A model generated the notes under the pieces. That model did not search any database and was not told the origin of the DNA. It saw nothing but the letters and a program-made list of their open reading frames with translations. The position numbers were made by a program, and so were the translations under genes. From an uncultured Sphingomonadales bacterium (GTDB lineage: Bacteria > Pseudomonadota > Alphaproteobacteria > Sphingomonadales > Sphingomonadaceae), in the NCBI GenBank assembly GCA_903858875.1, contig CAIOKP010000017.1, positions 1 to 36,797 of the forward strand: 36,797 bases of DNA, written 5' to 3'. Positions 1 to 19,755 of the stretch are shown piece by piece (position 1 is the stretch's first letter; each line of letters begins with the position of its first letter).

Positions 1-665
1 ATCAGTGCGCGAGCGTGACCCATCGTCAATTCGGCACCTTCGACCATACGGATTACCGATTCCGGCAAGCTCAGCAGGCGTTGAATATTCGCCACATGAC
101 TGCGCGATTTGTCGACCATCCGGGCAATGTCGGCCTGTGTCATCCCTTCCGATTCGGCGAGTCGTTGATAGGCACGCGCTTCTTCGATGGGGTTCAAATC
201 TTCGCGTTGGAGGTTTTCAATTAACGCCAGCGCCATAACCTCGCGGTCGGACAGCTTGCGGACCAACGCCGGAATTTCGTGCAATTGGGCGCGCTGCGCA
301 GCGCGCCAGCGGCGTTCACCAGCAACGAGGCGATAGCGCCCCTCACCCAGTGGCCGGACAATCACCGGTTGAATGACCCCGCGCGCACCAATCGACGCTG
401 CTAGCTCATTGAGCGCCGCCTCATCAAAATAGCGGCGCGGCTGATCCGGATCTGGCTCGATGACTGCAATCGGCAATTGGGCGAGACCGCTTTCAACCGA
501 AATCATTTGAGCCGGGGTGCTACCACCGCCATCCTTTGTGCCGGATGCCACAGGTTCTTCCCGACGGCTCTCGCCCAACAACGCCTGGAGCCCGCGCCCG
601 AGCGCCTGCGGCTTACGCCGAGCAACAGCGGGCGCGCCAGTTTGGGTAGTGGTGTCGTCGGTCAT
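1..665 (-). CDS. parB: Chromosome partitioning protein ParB (C-terminus truncated by window edge)
   Basis: Manual minus-strand translation from ATG at 665: MTDDTTTQTGAPAVARRKPQALGRGLQALLGE...QLPIAVIEPDPDQPRRYFDEAALNELAASIGARGVIQPVIVRP...GERRWRAAQRA...ALIENLQREDLNPIEEARAYQRL; ATGA overlap with parA stop. Confidence 0.96.
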   Translation of the reverse strand, partial: MTDDTTTQTGAPAVARRKPQALGRGLQALLGESRREEPVASGTKDGGGSTPAQMISVESGLAQLPIAVIEPDPDQPRRYFDEAALNELAASIGARGVIQPVIVRPLGEGRYRLVAGERRWRAAQRAQLHEIPALVRKLSDREVMALALIENLQREDLNPIEEARAYQRLAESEGMTQADIARMVDKSRSHVANIQRLLSLPESVIRMVEGAELTMGHARAL

Positions 666-1441
666 GCGGCTTTCCTGTGTGCGGGCAAACGCCCAATCAA
701 TTCGCGGGCCAGAGCCATATAGGCGCGGCTGCCCGTACAATGTTGATCATAGATCAGCGCTGGCAATCCGTGGCTTGGCGCTTCCGACAGGCGCACGTTG
801 CGCGGAATCGGCGTTTCAAACACCAACGCGCCCAGGCAGGATCGCACGTCATCCGACACCTGATCCGTCAACCGGTTACGCCGATCATACATGGTCAGCG
901 CCACACCAACGATCCCGAGGTCGGCATTGAACCGCTGCTGGACCCGCTCGACGGTCAACAAAAGCTGGCTTAGGCCTTCGAGCGCAAAAAATTCGCACTG
1001 CAACGGCACCAACAACGTATCCGCCGCTGTCAGCGCATTCAACGTCAACAAACCGAGCGAAGGCGGGCAGTCGATAAAACAGATGTCATGCACCCCCCCG
1101 TCGCGGGCAAGTGCATTGCGCAAACGGTCTGTCCGGTTCTCCACCGTCACCAGCTCGACCTCCGCGCCGGACAAATCGACCGTCGCCGGCACAATGTCGA
1201 GGCCGGGAATATTGGTCGACAAGGTGCATTCCGCAAGACTGGCATCGCCCAGCAACAGGTCATAGGTCGAATATTCGCGCGCCGCCGTGCCGATGCCCAC
1301 CCCGGTCGAGGCATTGCCTTGGGGATCAAGGTCGATCAACAGCGTGCGCCACCCCGTTGCGGCAAAGGCCGTGGCGAGGTTGATCGCAGTTGTGGTTTTA
1401 CCCACCCCACCCTTTTGATTGGCTATGGCAATCCGGATCAC
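662..1441 (-). CDS. parA: ParA family ATPase (chromosome partitioning)
   Basis: Walker A KGGVGKTTTAINLA, FIDCPPSLGLLTLNAL; adjacent to parB. Confidence 0.97.
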   Translation of the reverse strand: MIRIAIANQKGGVGKTTTAINLATAFAATGWRTLLIDLDPQGNASTGVGIGTAAREYSTYDLLLGDASLAECTLSTNIPGLDIVPATVDLSGAEVELVTVENRTDRLRNALARDGGVHDICFIDCPPSLGLLTLNALTAADTLLVPLQCEFFALEGLSQLLLTVERVQQRFNADLGIVGVALTMYDRRNRLTDQVSDDVRSCLGALVFETPIPRNVRLSEAPSHGLPALIYDQHCTGSRAYMALARELIGRLPAHRKAA

Positions 1442-2079
1442 TGCTTCACCCCTTTGGCATTGAGATGGCCGACGATCAGCCCAGCTTCTGCATCGGTCAG
1501 CGATGGTTCCACGTGGAACCCGGCACCAACAGAATTTTTTAGCGCTGCCAATTCAATCGCCGCTGAACGCCCCTTCGGCAACAGCCAAAGCGTGTCCCTT
1601 GTGGAAAAACGTGCGGATAGTTTCAGCAATCGATCCAGCGGCGCAAAGGCCCTTGCAGAGATCACCGCAAACGGTCGGGTCTCAATCTGCTCTAGCCGCT
1701 GACCGACGACGATCGCACGGGGTAGATCGAGCGCTTCACACACCCGGTTCAACCATTCGATCCGCATACCACGCGATTCGACCATCACCACTTCGCATTT
1801 TGGGCGCAACGCCGCGATCACCAGACCGGGAAACCCCGCACCAGTGCCAAGATCCAGCCACGGCGAGGATGTTTCACGTGGAACATGGGTTAACAATTGT
1901 GCCGAATCGAGAATGTGTCGCTGCCACAATGAATCAAGGCTGTTCGCGGAGACGAGGTTCTGCACCGCGTTTTCCTCGACCAACATCGCCGCCAGTTTTT
2001 CTAACCGCTCGATCGCCTCGGCATTGCCCTCCGGCATCGCGCGAATCCAGTCCCGCGCTGCGGCTTCGCTGTCGATCAT
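1438..2079 (-). CDS. rsmG: 16S rRNA (guanine527-N7)-methyltransferase RsmG (GidB)
   Basis: [15 protein letters not shown] motif; conserved gene order mnmG-rsmG-parA. Confidence 0.96.
1505..1520. promoter_or_regulatory. parS-like site in rsmG
   Basis: GGTTCCACGTGGAACC, perfect 16-bp palindrome. Confidence 0.85.
1870..1885. promoter_or_regulatory. parS site in rsmG
   Basis: TGTTTCACGTGGAACA, matches the general parS consensus TGTTNCACGTGNAACA. Confidence 0.93.
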
Positions 2080-3923
2080 CCGGTAATCCTTTTGGCATGA
2101 ACCAGCAACGCCGCTAGCGCCGCCGGGGTAATTCCTGGCACTCGCCCCGCCGCCGCCAGCGTGGCCGGGCGGGCATAGGACAGCCGCTCAACCATCTCTC
2201 GCGACAGGCCGGCGATGTCCGAATAGGGAAATTCATCAGCCAGGCCGAGTGTCTCATTGGCGCGCAGATCACGCAATTCCCGCTCCTGCCGCGCCAGATA
2301 CGGGGCATAGGCGGCGTCCTCCACCACCTCTTCGATCAATGCGGCGTCAGCGTCGAGCGACCGCCCGAGCCAAGGTTCGAGCGCCGCCATCTCCACCCCG
2401 TCAAACCGCAACCAATCGCGCAAAGGCAAACGCCCCGCGTCCGCCCTGGCCACAATGCCAAATGTTGCGAGATCGAGCGCGGTAACAGACTGGTCCAGCC
2501 CAGCCTCCAACGCTGCCTTCGCCGCCACGCGCTCGTCATACCACGTGACGCGATCAGCCCCGACACACCCGGCCGCGATTGCCAAAGGCGTCAATCGCGT
2601 CGTCGCATTATTGGCCCGCAACCGCAGCCGATACTCCGCCCGGGCGGTCAACATGCGATAGGGTTCGGTCACCCCGTGCAAAGTGAGGTCGTCGATCATC
2701 ACCGCCATATAGGAATTCGCGCGATCAATCGGTGCGGGCTCACTGCCCAACACTGCAGCGGCCGCGTGCATCCCGGCGACCAAGCCTTGCGCGGCAGCCT
2801 CTTCATAACCGGTCGTGCCATTGATCTGGCCAGCGCAATATAGCCCGGGCATCGCACGCAATTCGAGGCTGGGGCGCAAGGCGCGTGGGTCGATGTGATC
2901 GTACTCCACGGCATAGCCCGGCACCACCATGTCGACCGTTTCCAATCCTTCCATCGTCCGCAACATCGCCAATTGCACGTCGGCGGGGAGACTGGTCGAA
3001 ATGCCGTTGGGATAGACCAGCGGCGTGTCCAACCCTTCCGGCTCGAGGAAAATCTGATGGCTGTCGCGGTCAGCAAAGCGGTGGATCTTGTCCTCAATGC
3101 TTGGGCAATAGCGTGGGCCGCGCGCACCAATCGCACCGCTGAACAGCGGCGAGCGATGGAGATTTTCGCGGATTGTATCATGCGTGCCGGCGTTCGTGCG
3201 AGTGATCGCACAGAAAATTTGCGGGTTCACCCGCCCATGCCCCATCGCCGACATGCACCACGGATCGGCGTCGGAATGCTGCTCCTCCAACCGCGACCAG
3301 TCAATCGTCCGGCCATCGAGACGCGGCGGCGTACCCGTCTTCAACCGCGCCATCGGCAAATTGGCATCGCGCATCTGCGCCGCCAAACGGTGCGCGGCGG
3401 CTTCGCCAATGCGGCCACCAGTGATAACTTCCTCACCGCGAAACAACGTGGCGCCAAGGAAGGTGCCGGTGCACAAGACAACCGCGCGGCCATTTAACCG
3501 GGTGCCATCGGCCAAATCAATGCCGACCACGCGGTCGCCATCGAATACCAACGCGGCGGCCTCGCCAGCGATCTGGGTCAAGTTACCTTGCTCGGGCAAC
3601 ATCCGTTGGATCGCGGATTTGAATAATTTTCGATCGGCCTGAATGCGCGGACCTTGAACAGCGCTGCCCTTGGATCGATTGAGCATCCGATAGTGGATTG
3701 CCGCAGCATCCGCCGCGCGGCCCATCAACCCATCAAAGGCATCGACCTCGCGCACGAGGTGACCTTTGCCAAGTCCACCAATCGCCGGGTTGCAACTCAT
3801 CGCCCCGACAACGCTCAAATCAAAACTAACAAGTGCAACACAAGCACCCATGCGCGCGGCAACCGCGGCGGCTTCTATGCCGGCGTGTCCGCCGCCGATG
3901 ACGATGATGTCGAACTGCTGCAT
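2076..3923 (-). CDS. mnmG: tRNA uridine-5-carboxymethylaminomethyl(34) synthesis enzyme MnmG (GidA)
   Basis: [47 protein letters not shown]. Confidence 0.97.
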
Positions 3924-3963
3924 GACGCCGCGTTAGCCCAGCGGCGCGGCTGGGTCAAAAGAC

Positions 3964-3979
3964 TGTTCCACGTGAAACG
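3964..3979. promoter_or_regulatory. parS site in mnmE-mnmG intergenic gap
   Basis: TGTTCCACGTGAAACG. Confidence 0.92.
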
Positions 3980-3992
3980 CATTTTGTGGGCA

Positions 3993-5270
3993 CTATTTGC
4001 CAATACAAAATCGACCAAACAACGCGTCGAGCATATCCTCGGTCCCTGCGCCGCCGAGTAATCTGTCAAACGCCACCCGCGCCAAGCGCAAATTCTCAGC
4101 GACCAGCAAGAGGTCTCCGACAGGATCAATATGCGCAATTGCCGCGGCGGATTCCGCTAACAACCCGCGTTGCCTTGCGTTCAAAGCGACAGCACCCGGC
4201 TTGGGTAAACTGCGACGTGCCGTCTCAACCAAATCATGGCGCAGGTCAGACACCCCATCCCCCGTGACTGCTGAAAGGCGATGGCGAGCGTTCGCTTTGG
4301 GAAGATGATCCGTGCGGTCGATTTGCGATACAATCTCCCAGGCTCCCGATGGCCCCTCCCCCAAAGGTCCAAGCCATAATACAAGATCGGCCGCCGTCAT
4401 TGCCGCATGAGCGCGGGCAATGCCGATCTGCTCGACCACATCCGCGCCGGAATCGCGCAAGCCGGCGGTATCGAGAAATTGAAACGGCACACCGGCGATG
4501 GCAACCGCGCGCATCAATATGTCACGAGTGGTACCAGCGATTGGCGTGATAATCGCCGCCTCACTTTCAACCAGCGCATTGAACAACGTGCTCTTGCCAG
4601 CGTTGGGTGGACCGGCAATGACGACCTTAAACCCCTCGCCCAGCGCTTCTGCCCCAGGACGGGATAGCCACTCAGAAAGTTCCACGTGGAACATCCCGAT
4701 CGCGGACCCAAAGGCCAGAGGCAGTCCACCAACATCATCCTCATCGGAAAAGTCGAGCGCCGCTTCAACCATCGCCGACAAATACAACACCTGATCGCGC
4801 CAAGCCTTCACTTGCCGCGACAAGGCACCGTCGGCCATCGCCATTGCGCTTTGTCGTTGCAGTTCGGTCTCTGCTGACAATAGATCACCCAAACCTTCGG
4901 CCTGAGCCAAATCCATTCTGCCATTGGCAAAGGCCCGGCGGGTAAATTCGCCTGCTTCGGCACGGCGCAATCCCGGCAACCCAGCTAAAGCACGCTCAAT
5001 CGCCGCGATGACCGCGCGGCCGCCGTGGCAATGGATCTCGGCCAAATCTTCGCCCGTCGCAGTGGCTGGCCCCGGAAACCACAACAACAAGGCGTGATCG
5101 AGCATAGCGCCGTCAGCATCCCGCAAACTGGCAAGGCTCGCCCGGCGCGGTGCAGGCAACCGCCTGGCCAGCGCCCGTAACGCATTCCCCGCGTTCGATC
5201 CGCTGATCCGGATAACCGCAATCGCGGCCGGTGGCATCCCGCTGGAGCAGGCAAAAATCGTATCGGTCAT
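3993..5270 (-). CDS. mnmE: tRNA modification GTPase MnmE (TrmE)
   Basis: MTDTIFACSSGMPPAAIAVIRISG, G1 GPPNAGKSTLFN, GTTRD, C-terminal FCIGK. Confidence 0.97.
   Translation of the reverse strand: MTDTIFACSSGMPPAAIAVIRISGSNAGNALRALARRLPAPRRASLASLRDADGAMLDHALLLWFPGPATATGEDLAEIHCHGGRAVIAAIERALAGLPGLRRAEAGEFTRRAFANGRMDLAQAEGLGDLLSAETELQRQSAMAMADGALSRQVKAWRDQVLYLSAMVEAALDFSDEDDVGGLPLAFGSAIGMFHVELSEWLSRPGAEALGEGFKVVIAGPPNAGKSTLFNALVESEAAIITPIAGTTRDILMRAVAIAGVPFQFLDTAGLRDSGADVVEQIGIARAHAAMTAADLVLWLGPLGEGPSGAWEIVSQIDRTDHLPKANARHRLSAVTGDGVSDLRHDLVETARRSLPKPGAVALNARQRGLLAESAAAIAHIDPVGDLLLVAENLRLARVAFDRLLGGAGTEDMLDALFGRFCIGK
4678..4693. promoter_or_regulatory. parS site in mnmE
   Basis: AGTTCCACGTGGAACA. 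Confidence 0.9.
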
Positions 5271-5284
5271 GACAGAGTGGACTG

Positions 5285-5524
5285 TTACTTCTTGGCCGCC
5301 ATGCCAACGCCGGCTTCCATCAGCTGTTGAAACAATTTCATACCCATTTGCCCCATCGGCGCGACCTGCTTGGAAATTTCGTTCAACTGTTCGATGCTGC
5401 CAACACCCTGCATCGCCTTGGCCATCGCGTCGACATAGGCCGCATTCACGTCGGCCACATCAGGCAGACCCAAAAAACGACGCGCCTCGTCAGGTGTACA
5501 ATCAATCTCGACATTCATTTTCAT
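5285..5524 (-). CDS. Small conserved protein, DUF6489-like
   Basis: 79 aa ORF MKMNVEIDCTPDEARRFLGLPDVADVNAAYVDAMAKAMQ..., 14 bp upstream of mnmE. Confidence 0.75.
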   Translation of the reverse strand: MKMNVEIDCTPDEARRFLGLPDVADVNAAYVDAMAKAMQGVGSIEQLNEISKQVAPMGQMGMKLFQQLMEAGVGMAAKK

Positions 5525-5771
5525 AGCATGGCCTCTTTCGCCGTGTGATGATCGGATGACGCTGACACAGGTGACAGGGGTTGTCTATCCAAGGCACGTT
5601 CAAGCTGCACCCCGCAGCGTAAACCTATCCATTGACGGGCAAGATCCAAGGCCTTATCCGGTGTGCCTACCCGGCATAGACCGCGCTGTCCTGCGACGCG
5701 CGGCATAGGTTCGCTTTCCCCAAGCCCCATAGCCTGCCGGCCGAACCTCAATCCACTACGGATTTATGATT

Positions 5772-7028
<1,257 letters not shown>

Positions 7029-7045
7029 ACGGTTCGCAAGATTTC

Positions 7046-7079
7046 AAAAGGGCGGGGGGAAACCTCCGCCCTTTTTTTT
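7046..7079 (+). terminator. Intrinsic terminator downstream of rho
   Basis: AAAAGGGCGGGGGGAAACCTCCGCCCTTTTTTTT: GC-rich hairpin followed by T8. Confidence 0.88.
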
Positions 7080-7085
7080 AGCGCG

Positions 7086-7541
7086 TCAGAACGGTTTCAA
7101 CACCACCATGATGACGACCAATGCCGCGGCCAGCCCCGGTATCTCGTTCAACAACCGCAGCTGTTTGCCGGTCAACCGCCGTTCGCCACGGGCCAGCGCC
7201 TTGGCATAACCGGCCAGCCACACATGATAGCCCGACAGGCCCAGCACGACGGCGAGCTTCAGATGGAACCACCCCGCATGAAATGCCCCGATCGAATAGG
7301 CCAGCGCGAGCCCTAAGGCCCATACAACGCCCAGCGATGGCCACAGGATGATGCGTAACAGCTTTGCCTCACGATCAACCCAGCGGGCCTCCTCCGCCGA
7401 TCCAGCGGGTGATTCCTGATGGTAGACGAAATAGCGTGGCAGCATGAACAGGCCCGCCATCCAAAAGATGACGAAGATGATATGCCCCGCCTTGAGCCAC
7501 AGGTAAGTCATCGACAGCATCCAATCCATGCCCGCACCCAT
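7086..7541 (-). CDS. hemJ: HemJ-type protoporphyrinogen oxidase (CopD/UPF0093 family membrane protein)
   Basis: YLWLKAGHIIFVIFWMAGLFMLPRYFVYH; multiple TM segments; adjacent to hemE. Confidence 0.88.
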   Translation of the reverse strand: MGAGMDWMLSMTYLWLKAGHIIFVIFWMAGLFMLPRYFVYHQESPAGSAEEARWVDREAKLLRIILWPSLGVVWALGLALAYSIGAFHAGWFHLKLAVVLGLSGYHVWLAGYAKALARGERRLTGKQLRLLNEIPGLAAALVVIMVVLKPF

Positions 7542-7550
7542 GCCATAGCC

Positions 7551-8576
7551 CTACCTCCGCCAAGCGCGAACCAGCGCCAACACCTGTTCGACATGCGCGA
7601 TAGGCGTGGTCTGGCCGATGCCATGGCCGAGATTGAAAACATGGGGACGATCGGCAAAGGCTTCAAGCACGCGCGTCGTTCCAGCATCGAGCTCATCGCC
7701 GCCCGCCAGCAACAGCAGTGGGTCGAGATTGCCTTGCACCGGCATACCCACCGGCAATTCGCGCGCGGCCCATACCGGATCGATGGTCTCATCAATCCCT
7801 AGCGCGTCGACACCTGTTTCGCGGGCATAAGCGATCAGTTTTTCGCCGGCCCCCTTGGGAAAGCCAATGATTGGGACATGGGGATGGCGCGCCTTGACCG
7901 CCTTTACGATGGCGGCATTGGGCGCAATCACCCATTTTTCGAATTCACGCGGGGCGAGTGATCCGGCCCAACTGTCGAACAATTGGATGGCTTCCGCTCC
8001 GGCTTCGATCTGGCCACAGAGGTAGCCGACAGTCACCCCTACGATAGCATCGATGATCGCCGCAAAAGCCGATGGATCGCGATAGGCATAAGCGCGGGTG
8101 TCATGCTGGTCACGGCTGCCCTCGCCTGCGACCATATAGGTGGCGATGGTCCAGGGGCTGCCCGCAAAACCGAGCATGGTCCGGTCAGAGCCGAGTTGTG
8201 CTTTTACCTGCCGAACAGTCTCATAGATCGGGAACAGACGCTCTGGCACCGCTTGCAGGCCATTCAGCGCATGATCCACAAGGCGGGGTGACATGCGTGG
8301 TCCTTCGCCTGCCAGAAACTCCAGGTTCTGCCCCATCGCGTAGGGTACAATGAGAATGTCCGAAAACAGGATCGCTCCGTCAAAACCAAATCGCCGGATC
8401 GGTTGCAGAGTCACCTCCGCCGCTGCCGCGCTATCATACACAAGCGCCAGAAAGCCCCCCTTTTCGGCCCGCAAAGCGCGATATTCCGGGAGGTAACGCC
8501 CGGCTTGCCGCATCAGCCAAATCGGCCGCTGGTCGGCATTTTCACCACGGAGCGTACGGAGCAGGAGGCCGGGCAT
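7551..8576 (-). CDS. hemE: Uroporphyrinogen decarboxylase
   Basis: PIWLMRQAGRYLPEYRALR, NLGHGI; ATG at 8576 preferred over TTG at 8585. Confidence 0.96.
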   Translation of the reverse strand: MPGLLLRTLRGENADQRPIWLMRQAGRYLPEYRALRAEKGGFLALVYDSAAAAEVTLQPIRRFGFDGAILFSDILIVPYAMGQNLEFLAGEGPRMSPRLVDHALNGLQAVPERLFPIYETVRQVKAQLGSDRTMLGFAGSPWTIATYMVAGEGSRDQHDTRAYAYRDPSAFAAIIDAIVGVTVGYLCGQIEAGAEAIQLFDSWAGSLAPREFEKWVIAPNAAIVKAVKARHPHVPIIGFPKGAGEKLIAYARETGVDALGIDETIDPVWAARELPVGMPVQGNLDPLLLLAGGDELDAGTTRVLEAFADRPHVFNLGHGIGQTTPIAHVEQVLALVRAWRR

Positions 8577-8885
8577 TGAGTCCAATCCTTAACAAGAAAG
8601 AGTCTTTTTAAAGGGATTTAGTAGGTAGTTGGTCTGTGGATACTGGGTATAGCCAAGCCTTGCCCGATTTATCCCGGGATGAACAGAGCCCGCGCCGTTC
8701 CGACTCGTTGCCGCCCCCGGTCAAGCACAGCTTATCCTCGCTATCCCCAGCCTGTGGGAAACCTTGTCCACCTGTCCACAACTCCCCGATCTGACTCCGG
8801 TTAGCGGGTAGGAACCCGATACCCAAAGTTGTCAGCCTGTCTCTCCCGTGGTTTATGGGCAGGCTTTTCCACAGGACACCTGCGC
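8577..8885. other. Candidate chromosomal replication origin (oriC, Cori-type)
   Basis: hemE-ppsR(RP001-like) intergenic gap; AT-richer stretch 8589-8620; DnaA-box-like 9-mers GTATCCACA(-) 8635-8643, TTGTCCACC 8764-8772, CTGTCCACA 8772-8780, TTTTCCACA 8865-8873; gene direction diverges here. Confidence 0.8.
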
Positions 8886-9728
8886 ATGACCCGGTTGCAT
8901 CTTCACCTGCTGTCTGACTCCACCGGCGAGACGCTGGAGATGATCGCCAAGGCTGCGCTGTCGCAATTTGACGATACCGATGTCGTGCGACATTTTTGGC
9001 CAATGGTGCGCAGTCAGGCGCATCTCGACCGGATTATCTCCGATATCGGCGCTAATCCAGGCCTCGTGCTGTACACTATGGTCAGTCAGGACATTCGCAA
9101 GGCGCTGGAGGAACGCTGCCGGATGTTGGGCTTGCCGGCGGTGCCGGCGCTGGATGCGGTGATCGATGCGTTGGAAAGCGCGTTGGGGCAACAGGCGAAG
9201 GGGCGGCCGGGGCGGCAACATACGCTGGACGCCGCCTATTTCGCGCGGGTCGATGCGATCCATTTCACTATCGCCCATGATGACGGCATCGCGCATGAGG
9301 ATTGGGAAGAGGCCGACATCGTGCTGGCCGGTGTGTCGCGCACATCCAAAACCCCGACCAGCATCTATCTCGCCAATCGCGGGTATAAGGTCGCGAATAT
9401 TCCGGTCGTGGTGCAAAGTCCGCCGCCCGCCGATCTGTTCCGACTGAAAAAGCCGCTGGTCGTCGGGTTGACCACCGCGCCCGAACGCTTGATTCAGGTG
9501 CGGCGCAATCGGCTGTTGTCGCTTAATCAGTCGCCCGAAACCGCGTATGTCGATAGCGGCCAGGTGTCGGACGAATTGCTCTATGCCCGGCGGATGTTTG
9601 CCGACAATGGCTGGCCGGTGATCGACGTCACGCGCCGGTCCATCGAGGAAACGGCGGCGGCAGTGATCAACCTGTTGAAAGAACGGCACGTCCACGGCGA
9701 CGCGCAAACCGGAACAAAGCCCATCTGA
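8886..9728 (+). CDS. ppsR: Pyruvate, phosphate dikinase/PEP synthase regulatory protein (kinase/phosphorylase, DUF299; RP001-like)
   Basis: [58 protein letters not shown] at 8886 preferred over extended ORF start 8829. Confidence 0.93.
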
Positions 9729-10348
9729 TGTCTATCAACGCCCCCACCCTCGTGCTGGCCAGCCAGAGCGCCTCGCGCCGCGCCATGCTGGATGCCGCCG
9801 GCATCGCCCATGAGGCGATCCCCGCCCATGTCGATGAACGCGCGATAGAGGCGGCACTGGCCGACGCCCCTGCCCCGGATATTGCGCTGGCCTTGGCCGA
9901 TGCCAAAGCATTGGCGATTTCGGCGGCAATATCCGCGCCCGACCGTTTGGTATTGGGCAGCGATTCCCTGGTCGTCGTCGATGGCCGCCGTTTCGACAAA
10001 CCGACCAGTCGGGATAATGCCGCCGACCATCTGCGCTTCTTTTCGGGCAAGATGATGGAACTGCACTCCGCCGCCGCCATTGCGCGCGACGAGGTGATCG
10101 TCTGGCGCCACGCCGATGTCGTGTATCTGCATGTCCGCCCCTTGTCGGAGGCGTTTATTGCCGGCTACCTTGACGCGGAGTGGCCGCATGTCGCGGGCTG
10201 TGTCGGTGTATTCCGCATCGAGGCGCGCGGCGTGCAATTGTTCGAAAGGATTGACGGCGACCATTTCACCGTCTTGGGAATGCCGCTCCTGCCTGTACTC
10301 GGCGCGTTGCGACGCCTGGAGGGCAGCGAGGGAGACATGCCGCTATGA
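9728..10348 (+). CDS. maf: Maf-like nucleoside triphosphate pyrophosphatase
   Basis: [46 protein letters not shown]. Confidence 0.93.
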
Positions 10349-11178
10349 CCCTGCCCTATGCCGAAGTGATCGGTGACCCGATTGCCCAGTCGAAATCGCC
10401 CGCCATTCACGGCTTCTGGCTGGAAAAACTGGGGATCGCGGCGGAATATCGGCGGGCACATGTCCGGTCAGAGGAATTGGCGGCCTATATCGCCGCGCGC
10501 CGGGTCGATGCCGATTGGCGCGGGTGCAATGTCACTATGCCGCATAAGCAGGCGATTATCCGATTGCTCGACCGGCTGGATGCCACCGCCGCGAGGATTG
10601 GCGCGGTTAATACCGTGGTGTGTGAGGCAGATGGTACACTGACCGGGCGCAATACCGACGCGCCGGGTTTTATCGAACCTTTGTTGAAGGCGCCTGTCAT
10701 GCCAACGCGCGCGGTGGTGATTGGCGCGGGCGGCGCGGCACGGGCGATTGTTACGGCTTTGGTCGATGCGGGGGTGACCGTTACGATCGCCGCGCGCCAT
10801 CCGGCCGAGGCGGCGGCATTGCTGAATGATCTGGTGCCGGGTGCAGAGTACCGCGCTCTTGATTTGGCGGATGTTGCGCAGCCGGCTTCGGCGCCTGCCT
10901 TTGATCTGGTGGTCAATGCCAGCCCCTTGGGCATGGTCGGCAATCCGCCGCAGGTGTTCGACCTGTCGCACGCGACCGCCGACGCCATCGTCTATGATAT
11001 AGTTACCGCCCCGCGCGTCACGCCATTGATCGCGGCGGCGCGGCAGTCTGGCCAGCAGACGGTCGATGGCCTGTCGATGTTGATTGGCCAGGCCGCCGTG
11101 GCGTTCGAGCACTTCTTTGGCGTGGCACCCTTGCGCGACGATGGGGATGCTGAGCTGCGCGCCTTGCTGACGGCATGA
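10345..11178 (+). CDS. aroE: Shikimate dehydrogenase
   Basis: [42 protein letters not shown]; overlaps maf stop. Confidence 0.95.
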
Positions 11179-11783
11179 TCCGGCCGTTCATCCTCGGGTT
11201 GACCGGATCGATCGGTATGGGGAAATCGGCGGTTGCCGCGATGTTTGCCGATCAGGGCGTGCCAGTGTTCGATGCCGACGCCTGCGTTCGGGCGTTACAG
11301 GGGCCGGGCGGCGCGCTGTTACCGGCCATCGAATCGGCGTTCCCCGGCACCACTGGCCCCGCTGGGGTGGATCGCGGGGCGTTAGGTGCAGCGGTGTTTG
11401 GTAACCCGAAGGCACTTGGCATACTGGAGTCGATTGTTCACCCGGCGGTCGCTGTTCAGCGCGCAGCGTTTTTGCGCGATCATGCCGATGCGCCGCTGGT
11501 GATATTCGACATCCCGCTGTTGTTTGAGAAAACCGGGCGCGCGACGGTGGATGCGGTCCTTGTGGTGTCCACCACCCCAGAACAACAACGCCAACGGGTG
11601 TTGGCCCGCCCCGGCATGACGGCGGACAAATTCGCCGCGATCCTTGCGCTGCAAATGCCGGACGCCGAAAAGCGGGCAAAGGCGGACTATGTGATCGATA
11701 CATCAACCGGGTTGGATCAGACTCGGGATGCGGTGGGCGCGCTTATCGGGCAGATTTGCGAGGCATTGCCCGACGACGAATAA
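11175..11783 (+). CDS. coaE: Dephospho-CoA kinase
   Basis: ILGLTGSIGMGKSAVAAMFADQGVPVFDAD, ESIVHPAV, FDIPLLFE. Confidence 0.95.
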   Translation: MIRPFILGLTGSIGMGKSAVAAMFADQGVPVFDADACVRALQGPGGALLPAIESAFPGTTGPAGVDRGALGAAVFGNPKALGILESIVHPAVAVQRAAFLRDHADAPLVIFDIPLLFEKTGRATVDAVLVVSTTPEQQRQRVLARPGMTADKFAAILALQMPDAEKRAKADYVIDTSTGLDQTRDAVGALIGQICEALPDDE

Positions 11784-11828
11784 ATCCCATCATCCCCCTT
11801 GTGTGTTGGGCGGAGCAGGACAATAAAT

Positions 11829-12539
11829 ATGCAAATGAGAGAGATCATCTTCGACACCGAAACGACCGGTCTCGACCCCCAATCCGGCGACAGGTTGGTC
11901 GAAATCGGCTGCATCGAGATGATCAACAAAGTGGCGACCGGCGCCACATTTCACGCCTATTTCAATCCCGAGCGCGATATGCCGGCCGAAGCCGAGCGGG
12001 TGCATGGCCTATCGGTGACCTTTTTGGCGGACAAGCCGTTGTTCAAGACTCGGGCAGTGGAATTGCTCGAATTCCTCGGCGATTCGCCGCTGGTTGCGCA
12101 TAATGCCAGCTTCGACTTTGGCTTCCTCAATGCCGAACTGGCGATTTGCGGGATGGAACCGGTAGATCGCGGCCGCATGGTTGATACGGTCAAAATCGCC
12201 CGCGCGAAGCATCCGGGCGCCAAGAACTCGCTCGACGCGCTATGCAGCCGGTATGGCATCGATCGCAGCCATCGGACCTTGCACGGGGCGCTGCTCGATG
12301 CCGAATTGCTGGCGCAGGTCTATGTCGAATTGCTGGGCGGGCGCCAGATCGGTCTCGAACTGGCCGCCGATGCGGCAGGCGGGACAAATGGCGGGGCGAC
12401 CTTTACCACCACCCCTATCGCAACCGGGACGAGCGAGCGAACGTTCCGCCCTGCCCGGCCCCACACCGCCAGCCCGGAGGAACTGGCCACGCATGAGACA
12501 TTTGTGAAATCCCTCAAGGAGCCACTCTGGCTCAACTGA
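11829..12539 (+). CDS. dnaQ: DNA polymerase III subunit epsilon
   Basis: [63 protein letters not shown]. Confidence 0.96.
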
Positions 12540-12573
12540 TCACTTCGCTAAAACAACAAAAGGAGAAGCAACC

Positions 12574-13140
12574 ATGGACATTCGCGTTTCCGGCCATCAG
12601 ATGGAAACCGGTGAGGCTCTGCGCGTCCACGTCGAAGATCGGCTTAACGTCGTCGTCGACAAATATTTTTCGCGCGCCCTGTCTTCGGTTGTGACCTTCA
12701 GCAAGGCGCCAGGCGGCGCCTTTCGCTGCGACATCGTCACCCATGTGCGTCAGGGTTTGATTTTGAAAGGCGCCGCGATTGCGCATGATGCGCACAACGG
12801 GTTTGATCTCGCCGCTGACAAGGTCGAAACCCAGCTTCGCCGTTACAAGCGCCGGTTGAGCGCACGTCAGGAACAGGCCGCCCATGCGGTGCGCTCGGAC
12901 GATGCGGCGTATACGATCTTTATCGAACCCGATGTTGAAATCGAGGAAGTTACTGTCGAGGCACCGCTTGTCATCGCGGAAATGCGCGTCGATGTGCCCG
13001 AGACCACGGTGTCGGATGCGGTGATGATGCTCGACTTGCGAAACACCAATGCCTTGCTGTTCAAAAACGCTGGTACGGGCAAACATAATATGGTCTATCG
13101 CCGGGGTGATGGCTCGATCGGCTGGGTCGAACCGTCCTGA
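12574..13140 (+). CDS. hpf: Ribosome hibernation promoting factor, long-form HPF/RaiA
   Basis: MDIRVSGHQMETGEALRVHVEDRL; C-terminal MMLDLRNTNALLFKNAGTGKHNMVYRRGDGSIGWVEP. Confidence 0.93.
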   Translation: MDIRVSGHQMETGEALRVHVEDRLNVVVDKYFSRALSSVVTFSKAPGGAFRCDIVTHVRQGLILKGAAIAHDAHNGFDLAADKVETQLRRYKRRLSARQEQAAHAVRSDDAAYTIFIEPDVEIEEVTVEAPLVIAEMRVDVPETTVSDAVMMLDLRNTNALLFKNAGTGKHNMVYRRGDGSIGWVEPS

Positions 13141-13205
13141 CCAGCGTTTTAGCACCGCTTTGACCTCGGGTTGATGTGGCCGCCCTTGCGGTTTTTCCGG
13201 GGCAG

Positions 13206-13248
13206 AGGCGTTTGATGATGGCTATATCTCCAGCCTGATCAAACGCCT
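13206..13248 (+). terminator. Long hairpin between hpf and ptsN (terminator/attenuator candidate)
   Basis: AGGCGTTTGAT (13206-13216) ... ATCAAACGCCT (13238-13248), inner GGCT/AGCC; followed by TTGCG. Confidence 0.55.
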
Positions 13249-13259
13249 TTGCGTGTTCC

Positions 13260-13796
13260 ATGAAAAACCGCTATCGGCGGCGCCACTCCCGCAGGCATAT
13301 GGCGCGCGGGATAGAAGGCATTTGTATTTCAGCGATGACGGTGTTGTTCACGCTCTTGCCAGAAGCCGTGGGTACGGTGAAGGCCGACAGCAAGTCGGCT
13401 GTACTCGAGCAGCTCGCTGCCCGGTTCGCGACCGTCTATGGTCTCGATCGCGCCCTCGTGCTCGAACGCCTTGTCCAGCGGGAAAATCTTGGCAGCACCG
13501 GTTTTGGTCGCGGTGTCGCCATTCCCCATGCGCGGATTGCCGACGTTGAACGCCCGATGGCGGCGTTTCTGCGGTTAGAAGCGCCAGTGGCGTTTGATGC
13601 CGCCGATGATATGCCGGTCAGCCTGGTGTTCGGCCTGCTGTCGCCGGAACAGGCTGGCGTGGTGCATTTGCACGCGCTGGCGGCGATTTCGCGGATGATG
13701 CGCGATGATCGTATGCACACCGCGCTGGACGAAGCGCCGAGCGATGAGGCGCTCTATTCCCTGATCGCCAACGTTATCGACCGTGACGCCGGCTGA
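13260..13796 (+). CDS. ptsN: PTS IIA-like nitrogen regulatory protein PtsN (start uncertain)
   Basis: LVQRENLGSTGFGRGVAIPHARI, FGLLSPEQAGVVHLHALAAISRMMRD. Confidence 0.9.
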   Translation: MKNRYRRRHSRRHMARGIEGICISAMTVLFTLLPEAVGTVKADSKSAVLEQLAARFATVYGLDRALVLERLVQRENLGSTGFGRGVAIPHARIADVERPMAAFLRLEAPVAFDAADDMPVSLVFGLLSPEQAGVVHLHALAAISRMMRDDRMHTALDEAPSDEALYSLIANVIDRDAG

Positions 13797-14274
13797 CGGG
13801 GTCTTTGCCCCTGTATCGGGGGCCCAGACCCATTGGCGCGCATTGGAACACCTTTATGCTTCGGCGCCAATCAATGCGTTGTTTCGGTCCGACTTGGTGA
13901 TCCCCGGTGAGGGGCAATCGCGCATTACGTTCCACGTGGAACCTTCGTGCTATCACGCGGCAGGGGCGGCGCATGGTACGGTCTATTTCAAGATGCTTGA
14001 TGATGCCGCGTTTTACGCGGCTAATACACTGGTCACAGACCGATTTTTGTTGACCACCGCGTTCAACCTGCATTTCACCCGCCCGATCAAATCCGGCATT
14101 TTCGTTGCAGAAGGCAAATGGATCAGCGGCCGGCGCCGCGTGCTGGTGGCCGAGGCGCGGCTGCTGGACGAGGAGGGTGAGGAGGTTGGCCGGGGCACCG
14201 GAACCTTCATGCGGTCACACATCGCGCTGAGCGGGCTGGATGGCTATGCCGGCACCGCGCGGGCGGGGCAATGA
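13783..14274 (+). CDS. PaaI-type (hotdog) thioesterase
   Basis: HAAGAAHGTVYFKMLDDAAFYAANTLV ... TTAFNLHFTRPIKSG hotdog-fold pattern. Confidence 0.85.
   Translation: MTPADGVFAPVSGAQTHWRALEHLYASAPINALFRSDLVIPGEGQSRITFHVEPSCYHAAGAAHGTVYFKMLDDAAFYAANTLVTDRFLLTTAFNLHFTRPIKSGIFVAEGKWISGRRRVLVAEARLLDEEGEEVGRGTGTFMRSHIALSGLDGYAGTARAGQ
13928..13943. promoter_or_regulatory. parS-like site in PaaI-type thioesterase gene, on the opposite side of oriC
   Basis: CGTTCCACGTGGAACC. Confidence 0.82.
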
Positions 14275-18264: not shown

Positions 18265-19755
18265 TCAGGCCAGCGCCGACGCGGGCAAGACTATCGTGTT
18301 CAACGAATCTGCCGGCAGATCGAGCGCCAGCGTTCGCCCCCCCACATCATAGCGCACCTGCTGCACCTGCCCGAGGCTGTTGCTGGCCACCAGCACCAGC
18401 GAGCCGTCGGGGTTGCGGAACGCCAGTTGGTCGTCAAAGCCCAGGAAGCTGTCGACCGGGATCGCCCGCGCGCCGGGGCGGACATGGCTGGCCAAATGGC
18501 GGATCAGCCAATAATCCTGCGTCAGCCGATAGGACCGCCGCGCGGGATCGACCACGACCAGACTGTTCTGCGGCCAACCCCAACCGCTCCAGCCGCCTTC
18601 GGGCATTGCAATGTTCCAATAGTTCCACGCCGATGCGCCAGCGTCGAAATATTGCTTGATGGTTTTCCAGCCATAGCGGGCATAGTGCCAATCATTGGTG
18701 CCCACGCCGCATTCCTGCTCGCTGCCCCACAATTCGATGTCGGGAAACCGGCTGCGTAACAACGGCAGGGCGCCTTTGCCAGCCCATTGCACGCCGATGC
18801 CCTTGACCACGGCGGCGGCCTTGGGGTCGGCCATCACGTGCGAAAACAGGTCGGCATTGCCGCGTTCCAGCGTGCCAAAGAACACTTTGACGCCATGGAG
18901 GTCCATCTCGCGCCCAAGGAACGGCAGGAACCGCGCCAACCCCTCCGGCGTCCAGCAGCACGAGGGGAAGGGCTGTGCCGAGTTGAATTCATTTTGCGGC
19001 ATGACCGTATCGATGCGAATGCCCTTGGCGGCGTAGGCCTCGACATAGCGCGCGAAATAGCGGGCATAGGCCGCGAAATAGCGGTCGTCCTGAAGGAAGC
19101 TGTCCTGCCCTTCCTTGCCATATTGGTCGGGGCGGATGCCGGTGTCGGGCTGGCCGGGCCAAGCGGGGGCTTGCGCATAATGGCCGCCCTTTTTCATCCA
19201 TGTCGGCGGCGACCATGGCGAGGCCCATAGCCGCAGATCGGGCTGAAACGCCTGCGCCGCCTTGATGAACGGGATCAGCGTGTCGTCATCATTGGCGATG
19301 GAAAAATGGTCGAGCGCAAAATCACCCGGGGTTTCGTCATAGGAATACCAGCGCCGCGAAATGTCATTGGCCCCCATCGGCGTCCGGCACAGCGACAGCG
19401 CGCAGCCATCCGTCCCGAACAGCGCCGACAGTGCCGCATGGCGATCAGCTGGTGTCAGCACGTTCAGCGCATCCCAACCCTTTTCGCTGAACGCCCCGCC
19501 GAAACCGGCGATGGTCTGGCGCGGGGTATCGAGGCGGACCGTCGCGTCGCTGGCAAACAGGCTGGCCGGCGCGCCGCCCAGCGCGGGCAGGGCGCGGCTT
19601 TGCCATGGCGCGCGGGCAGTGGTCGAAAACCACCGGGTGGCGGTCGCGTCGCTGGCGGTTGCGGCCACCACTGCGGTAGGTAGCAGGCTTTGGCCGGCCA
19701 CCGCGCCCATCAGGCCGAGCGCACCGCGGCGCGACAAGGCAAACGGATCAGTCAT
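18265..19755 (-). CDS. Glycoside hydrolase family 30 protein (glucosylceramidase-like), with Tat-like signal
   Basis: SRRGALGLMGAV N-terminus; QTIAGFGGAFSEKGWDAL, WASPWSPPTWMK, MPQNEF acid/base, ELWGSEQECG nucleophile region. Confidence 0.9.
   Translation of the reverse strand: MTDPFALSRRGALGLMGAVAGQSLLPTAVVAATASDATATRWFSTTARAPWQSRALPALGGAPASLFASDATVRLDTPRQTIAGFGGAFSEKGWDALNVLTPADRHAALSALFGTDGCALSLCRTPMGANDISRRWYSYDETPGDFALDHFSIANDDDTLIPFIKAAQAFQPDLRLWASPWSPPTWMKKGGHYAQAPAWPGQPDTGIRPDQYGKEGQDSFLQDDRYFAAYARYFARYVEAYAAKGIRIDTVMPQNEFNSAQPFPSCCWTPEGLARFLPFLGREMDLHGVKVFFGTLERGNADLFSHVMADPKAAAVVKGIGVQWAGKGALPLLRSRFPDIELWGSEQECGVGTNDWHYARYGWKTIKQYFDAGASAWNYWNIAMPEGGWSGWGWPQNSLVVVDPARRSYRLTQDYWLIRHLASHVRPGARAIPVDSFLGFDDQLAFRNPDGSLVLVASNSLGQVQQVRYDVGGRTLALDLPADSLNTIVLPASALA

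What the first reader, a model, noticed from the sequence alone, without database searches (positions are those of the whole stretch)
1505..13943. Five parS centromere sites bracketing the putative oriC on both sides
Five sites share a GTTYCACGTGRAAC core: 1505, 1870, 3964, 4678 and 13928. Three of them contain the exact 12-mer TTCCACGTGGAA, expected about 0.002 times by chance in 37 kb at equal base frequencies. Four lie 4-7 kb left of the hemE-ppsR gap and one about 5 kb to its right. ParB/parS at the origin is established knowledge; the site map of this genome, with a lone site on the right arm, is read directly here.
Basis: partly seen in the sequence, partly recalled or inferred. Interest (0 to 1): 0.72.

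Follow-up and report, generated by a model that had tools for sequence, protein, structure and literature searches.

The report
Bacterial centromere sites around replication origin
The five palindromes are almost certainly ordinary parS centromere sites of a Novosphingobium chromosome, all clustered around its predicted replication origin; the one on the far side of the origin is a lineage-specific addition that was probably gained separately at the same codons in another branch of the genus.

Summary
Five exact GTTYCACGTGRAAC sites lie at 1506, 1871, 3965, 4679 and 13929, and they are the only five in the whole 3.06 Mb draft genome (about 0.03 expected by chance). The window is the origin region of a Novosphingobium-like sphingomonad: parB-parA-rsmG-mnmG-mnmE-rho-hemJ-hemE, then a gap rich in DnaA-box-like sequences, then ppsR-maf-aroE-coaE-dnaQ-hpf-ptsN-paaI. 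The adjacent ParB keeps the residues reported to give parS rather than Noc-site specificity. All 48 good-quality relatives searched carry the motif. The rsmG 3'-terminal site is present in 36 of 36 relatives whose rsmG is in reach, although its flanking codons vary. These are therefore parS sites of a ParABS system, a known kind. The "bracketing" is real but variable: in the genus, 12 of 25 genomes with hemE on a site-bearing contig have a site on the ppsR side, at differing positions. The lone right-arm site lies inside a paaI-like thioesterase gene. It occurs in 4 of 196 genus genomes, in two separate clades at the same codons, most simply by independent gain. That small evolutionary point is the only part that seems new. 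No binding was measured.

The parts
3..746 (-). parB (cut by the contig start; N-terminal 248 residues in frame, the first ones before the start codon)
   Evidence: TIGR00180 parB_part 190 bits against a cut-off of 58; nearest solved relatives are chromosomal Spo0J/ParB; R173, N178, G201, R204 equivalents kept
662..1441 (-). parA
   Evidence: ParA/MinD-type ATPase matches, directly upstream of parB
1506..1519 (.). parS site 1, inside the 3' end of rsmG (1438-2079, -); encodes FHVE
   Evidence: exact match; present at the same alignment column in 36 of 36 rsmG genes compared
1871..1884 (.). parS site 2, inside rsmG; encodes VPRET
   Evidence: exact match; same column in 32 of 36 rsmG genes
3965..3978 (.). 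parS site 3, in the 69-bp gap between mnmE (3993-5270, -) and mnmG (2076-3923, -)
   Evidence: exact match; a site at the corresponding intergenic place in nearly all relatives with this region
4679..4692 (.). parS site 4, inside mnmE; encodes FHVE
   Evidence: exact match; same column in 8 of 49 mnmE genes, with other relatives using two other mnmE columns
7551..8585 (-). hemE, left boundary gene of the predicted origin
   Evidence: orthologues at 77-86% identity in Novosphingobium origin regions
8586..8876 (.). hemE-ppsR gap, predicted oriC
   Evidence: densest cluster of DnaA-box-like 9-mers in the window, 7 in 300 bp with up to 2 mismatches; 54% GC; same boundary genes as the Caulobacter origin (PMC1914354)
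8877..9728 (+). ppsR (DUF299/COG1806), right boundary gene
   Evidence: NF003742, 331 bits against a cut-off of 225
13929..13942 (.). parS site 5, lone right-arm site, inside a paaI-like hotdog thioesterase gene (13783-14274, +); encodes FHVE
   Evidence: exact match; thioesterase TIGR00369; same codons as in L055 and L064 only, among 58 paaI genes

Best explanation
The five sites are functional parS centromere sites of the chromosomal ParABS system of a Novosphingobium-like bacterium. ParB, encoded next to them, loads at parS as a CTP-dependent clamp, spreads onto neighbouring DNA and forms one partition complex over the origin region. ParA then pulls the copied origins apart, and the complex probably also loads SMC (these steps are known from other bacteria and inferred here). 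The four left-arm sites in and around rsmG-mnmG-mnmE are the main cluster; the rsmG pair and the mnmG-mnmE intergenic site are the conserved core. The site in paaI is an accessory, lineage-specific parS on the other side of oriC that can extend the ParB domain across the origin. Shown here: site identity, genome-wide clustering, conservation, ParB residues. Inferred: binding, segregation role, added value of the right-arm site.
For: Five exact sites and no others in the draft genome, about 0.03 expected by chance. Adjacent parA and parB. ParB keeps R173 and G201, stated to be absolutely conserved in ParB and to contact parS (PMC7383237; alignment to the Caulobacter ParB structure 6t1f). The motif is in 48 of 48 relatives of good quality, with the reversed control nearly absent. 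In 25 genus genomes the sites cluster mostly within tens of kb of hemE. The rsmG terminal site is kept in 36 of 36 genes at mean 1.95 bits per base, against 1.04 in the flanks and 0.64 at other third positions. The 14-mer GTTCCACGTGGAAC, present here three times, is the core of Pseudomonas aeruginosa parS1-4, which ParB binds in vivo (PMC5098823).
Against: No binding or segregation data for this organism. parB is incomplete in the contig. The genome is a draft. ParB here has Asp where Caulobacter has the parS-contacting G170, although all sphingomonad ParBs seen share it. Cumulative GC skew does not single out the hemE-ppsR gap within the window; its minimum is at 18,961.
Confidence: 0.95

Rival explanations
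1. The four left-arm sites are working parS, but the paaI site is a chance or passive motif that is not used for segregation.
For: It is absent from most relatives: 4 of 196 genus genomes have a parS at these paaI codons. Single sites away from the cluster can be dispensable; one parS suffices in P. aeruginosa (PMC5098823). The F-x-V-E background is only 3-4 changes from parS in many relatives.
Against: Chance expectation in all ppsR-side 9-kb stretches of 68 loci is 0.006, whereas 7 of the 68 have a site. Two separate clades hold it at the same codons, with an otherwise unseen His. An exact 14-mer identical to verified parS will very probably bind ParB.
Confidence: 0.2
2. The palindromes are sites of another DNA-binding protein with a CACGTG core, or Noc-type sites.
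For: CACGTG cores are used by other regulators (own knowledge); the genome encodes further ParB-family proteins.
Against: Four of five sites are not in promoters; they sit beside parAB and around the origin. The full 14-bp core is parS, and the adjacent ParB has the parS-type residues R173 and G201, not the Noc-type Q173 and R201.
Confidence: 0.02
3. The paaI site is ancestral to the genus and was lost in most lineages, or moved between lineages by recombination, rather than being gained twice.
For: Counts of change cannot separate gain from loss, and a short tract exchange would leave little trace.
Against: The gene tree without the site columns places L055 with L086, L090, L060 and L068, which lack the site, and no bootstrap tree has one origin. 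Well-supported species-tree branches force at least two changes. A single gain would need many losses.
Confidence: 0.25

Closest known systems
Caulobacter crescentus chromosomal ParABS and its parS cluster (PMC5815017)
   Same: ParAB, parS sites of the same core clustered in a few kb, about 8 kb from the hemE-COG1806 origin on the left arm; several lie inside genes.
   Different: In Caulobacter the sites reported are in one left-arm cluster; here one further site lies on the right arm. The sites here are mostly the GTTCCAC-GTGGAAC form.
Pseudomonas aeruginosa parS1-4 (PMC5098823)
   Same: Identical core GTTCCACGTGGAAC, bound by ParB in vivo, near oriC.
   Different: Different gene neighbourhood and class (Gammaproteobacteria); there one site is enough for segregation, which is untested here.
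Origin regions of other Novosphingobium (loci; genomes)
   Same: Same gene order, rsmG and mnmG-mnmE sites, and 2-8 sites in most genomes.
   Different: Right-arm sites sit elsewhere (maf, intergenic, or 18-40 kb away) or are missing.

Membership tests
parS sites of chromosomal ParABS | 16-bp palindrome with core GTTYCACGTGRAAC | tested here: met
   five exact copies
parS sites of chromosomal ParABS | clustered near oriC, rare elsewhere | tested here: met
   all five in 12.4 kb around the hemE-ppsR gap, none elsewhere in the draft genome
parS sites of chromosomal ParABS | cognate ParA and ParB encoded by the same genome, usually next to the sites | tested here: met
   parA 662-1441, parB 3-746
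parS sites of chromosomal ParABS | ParB with parS-specifying residues R173 and G201 (Caulobacter numbering) | tested here: met
   alignment to 6t1f and residues in PMC7383237
parS sites of chromosomal ParABS | conservation across related species beyond the coding constraint | tested here: met
   rsmG terminal site in 36 of 36, the most conserved 14-nt window of the gene
parS sites of chromosomal ParABS | ParB binding, spreading and a role in segregation | not testable with these tools
   needs ChIP-seq or in vitro assay
Caulobacter-type replication origin | located between hemE and the COG1806 (ppsR) gene with several DnaA boxes | tested here: met
   gap 8586-8876, 7 DnaA-box-like 9-mers with up to 2 mismatches, the densest in the window
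Caulobacter-type replication origin | GC-skew minimum at the gap | tested here: inconclusive
   local dip near 9-10 kb, lower minimum at 18,961
Noc binding sites (NBS) | A at position 1 and C at position 6, with Noc residues Q173 and R201 | tested here: not met
   all sites have the parS letters; ParB has R173 and G201

The most novel reading that the evidence does not exclude
Accessory parS sites are gained repeatedly at predisposed codons (an F-x-V-E context) inside genes on either side of oriC, and the centromere requirement then dictates the protein sequence there: in the paaI thioesterase the same parS, with an otherwise unseen His, arose separately in two Novosphingobium clades.
Probability: 0.5. 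Interest if true: 0.4.

Novelty: new member of a known kind. Interest (0 to 1): 0.25.

Why it matters
It gives a clean parS map for a genus for which no parS paper turned up in the library searched, and it shows a conserved core (the rsmG pair and the mnmG-mnmE gap) plus a changing set of accessory sites. Caulobacter work proposed that new parS sites are tolerated mainly near the old cluster (PMC5815017); the turnover seen here is a natural test of that idea.

Tried and rejected
Other sites with 1-2 mismatches in the genome: the 1-mismatch copies (C157:2392, C391:8535) are not more than chance, since the reversed control pattern gave more hits (137 against 42), and the C391 one lies in what reads like a cysteine desulfurase (SufS/CsdA-type) gene (the gene name is my reading of the translation). 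Noc-type sites: rejected by sequence and by ParB residues. GC skew as proof of oriC: not decisive. A within-gene rate test for a burst of changes at the L055 site against its nearest relatives was only suggestive (5 of 14 against 16-17% elsewhere, p about 0.07). Literature on parS in Novosphingobium, or parS with rsmG, gave nothing relevant.

Full report
Observation. The 14-bp core GTTYCACGTGRAAC occurs exactly at 1506, 1871, 3965, 4679 and 13929, with no further copy at up to 2 mismatches in the window. The whole draft genome (3.06 Mb, 397 contigs, 89.6% complete) has these five and no others, and the reversed control pattern has none. Chance expectation is about 0.03 genome-wide at 62% GC.

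Setting. The gene order is parB-parA-rsmG-mnmG-mnmE (minus strand), rho, hemJ-hemE, a 291-bp gap, ppsR-maf-aroE-coaE-dnaQ, hpf, ptsN, paaI-like thioesterase. The family identities of parB, rsmG, mnmG, mnmE, ppsR, hpf, ptsN and paaI are, and parA is a ParA/MinD-type match there; rho, hemJ, hemE, maf, aroE, coaE and dnaQ are named by reading the translations and from synteny with relatives. The nearest origin regions belong to Novosphingobium. The hemE-ppsR(COG1806) pair bounds the experimentally defined Caulobacter origin (PMC1914354), and the origin of most Sphingomonadaceae is predicted near hemE (PMC4741004). In this window the gap has the densest group of DnaA-box-like 9-mers. GC skew alone does not settle the place.

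The binding protein. ParB is cut by the contig start, but its DNA-binding region is present. Aligned to Caulobacter ParB (6t1f) it has R173, N178, G201 and R204; [quoted passage not shown] Position 170 is Asp in this ParB and in every relative where the region was readable, where Caulobacter has a parS-contacting Gly. The core GTTCCACGTGGAAC is that of parS1-4 of P. aeruginosa, bound in vivo (PMC5098823).

Conservation. All 48 good-quality relatives across the order have the motif. Among 36 rsmG genes within reach, the 3'-terminal site is present in 36 and the upstream site in 32, at fixed alignment columns. The terminal site averages 1.95 bits per base against 1.04 in its flanks. The site in the mnmG-mnmE gap recurs in most loci. 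The mnmE site shares its column with 7 relatives, while others use two different mnmE columns.

Bracketing. Of 25 genus genomes with hemE on a site-bearing contig, 12 have at least one site on the ppsR side, from +1.4 to +40 kb in the main; one of them (G006) owes this to an apparent inversion that put the par cluster there. Within 9 kb of hemE on that side, 7 of 68 loci have a site, against 0.006 expected by chance: four in maf, two in paaI, one intergenic. The right-arm site of this genome is therefore one case of a variable accessory set.

The paaI site. A genus-wide search found ACGTTYCACGTGRAACC in 11 of 196 genomes, and in 4 of them the match lies in paaI: this genome, G111 (which has the contig length of L055), G112 and G120 (which has the contig length of L064). 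In the 58-gene alignment the three holders (window, L055, L064) have the site at the same codons and are the only ones with His there; all others are at least 3 mismatches away. On the concatenated tree of nine neighbouring proteins, the window and L064 fall together (with site-less L046, L047, L049, in which no paaI was found nearby) and L055 falls in another clade, so starred branches force at least two changes. The paaI tree without the site columns keeps L055 with site-less relatives at up to 96% identity and gives no bootstrap tree with one origin. Independent gain is the simplest reading; many losses or short recombination are not excluded.

Mechanism. By analogy with well-studied systems, ParB loads at parS with CTP, spreads, is moved by ParA and recruits SMC. 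In Caulobacter the sites cluster about 8 kb from the origin on the left arm and ParB covers about 10 kb (PMC5815017), which matches the left cluster here. What the right-arm site adds is not known; a wider ParB domain spanning oriC is the likeliest effect. Verdict: ordinary parS sites of a known system, with a modest evolutionary twist.

Noticed in passing
window 3-746 (-), parB: Asp replaces the parS-contacting Gly170 of Caulobacter ParB in this protein and in every relative where the region was readable (VDKSRSHVAN).
   Followed up: partly
G025 (same genus), several contigs: One relative has 15 copies of the parS core, some 294-443 kb from hemE on the same contig and others on other contigs.
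   Followed up: no
G006:C4:37711-41318: The par-cluster-like sites of this relative lie 30-34 kb on the ppsR side of hemE, which suggests an inversion around the origin.
   Followed up: no
G000:C57:1188-1685 and C251:184-375: Further ParB-family proteins in the draft genome, perhaps from plasmids.
   Followed up: no
L046, L047, L049: No paaI orthologue was detected within reach on the ppsR side in these close relatives of the window, so the parS-bearing gene may have been lost or moved there.
   Followed up: no
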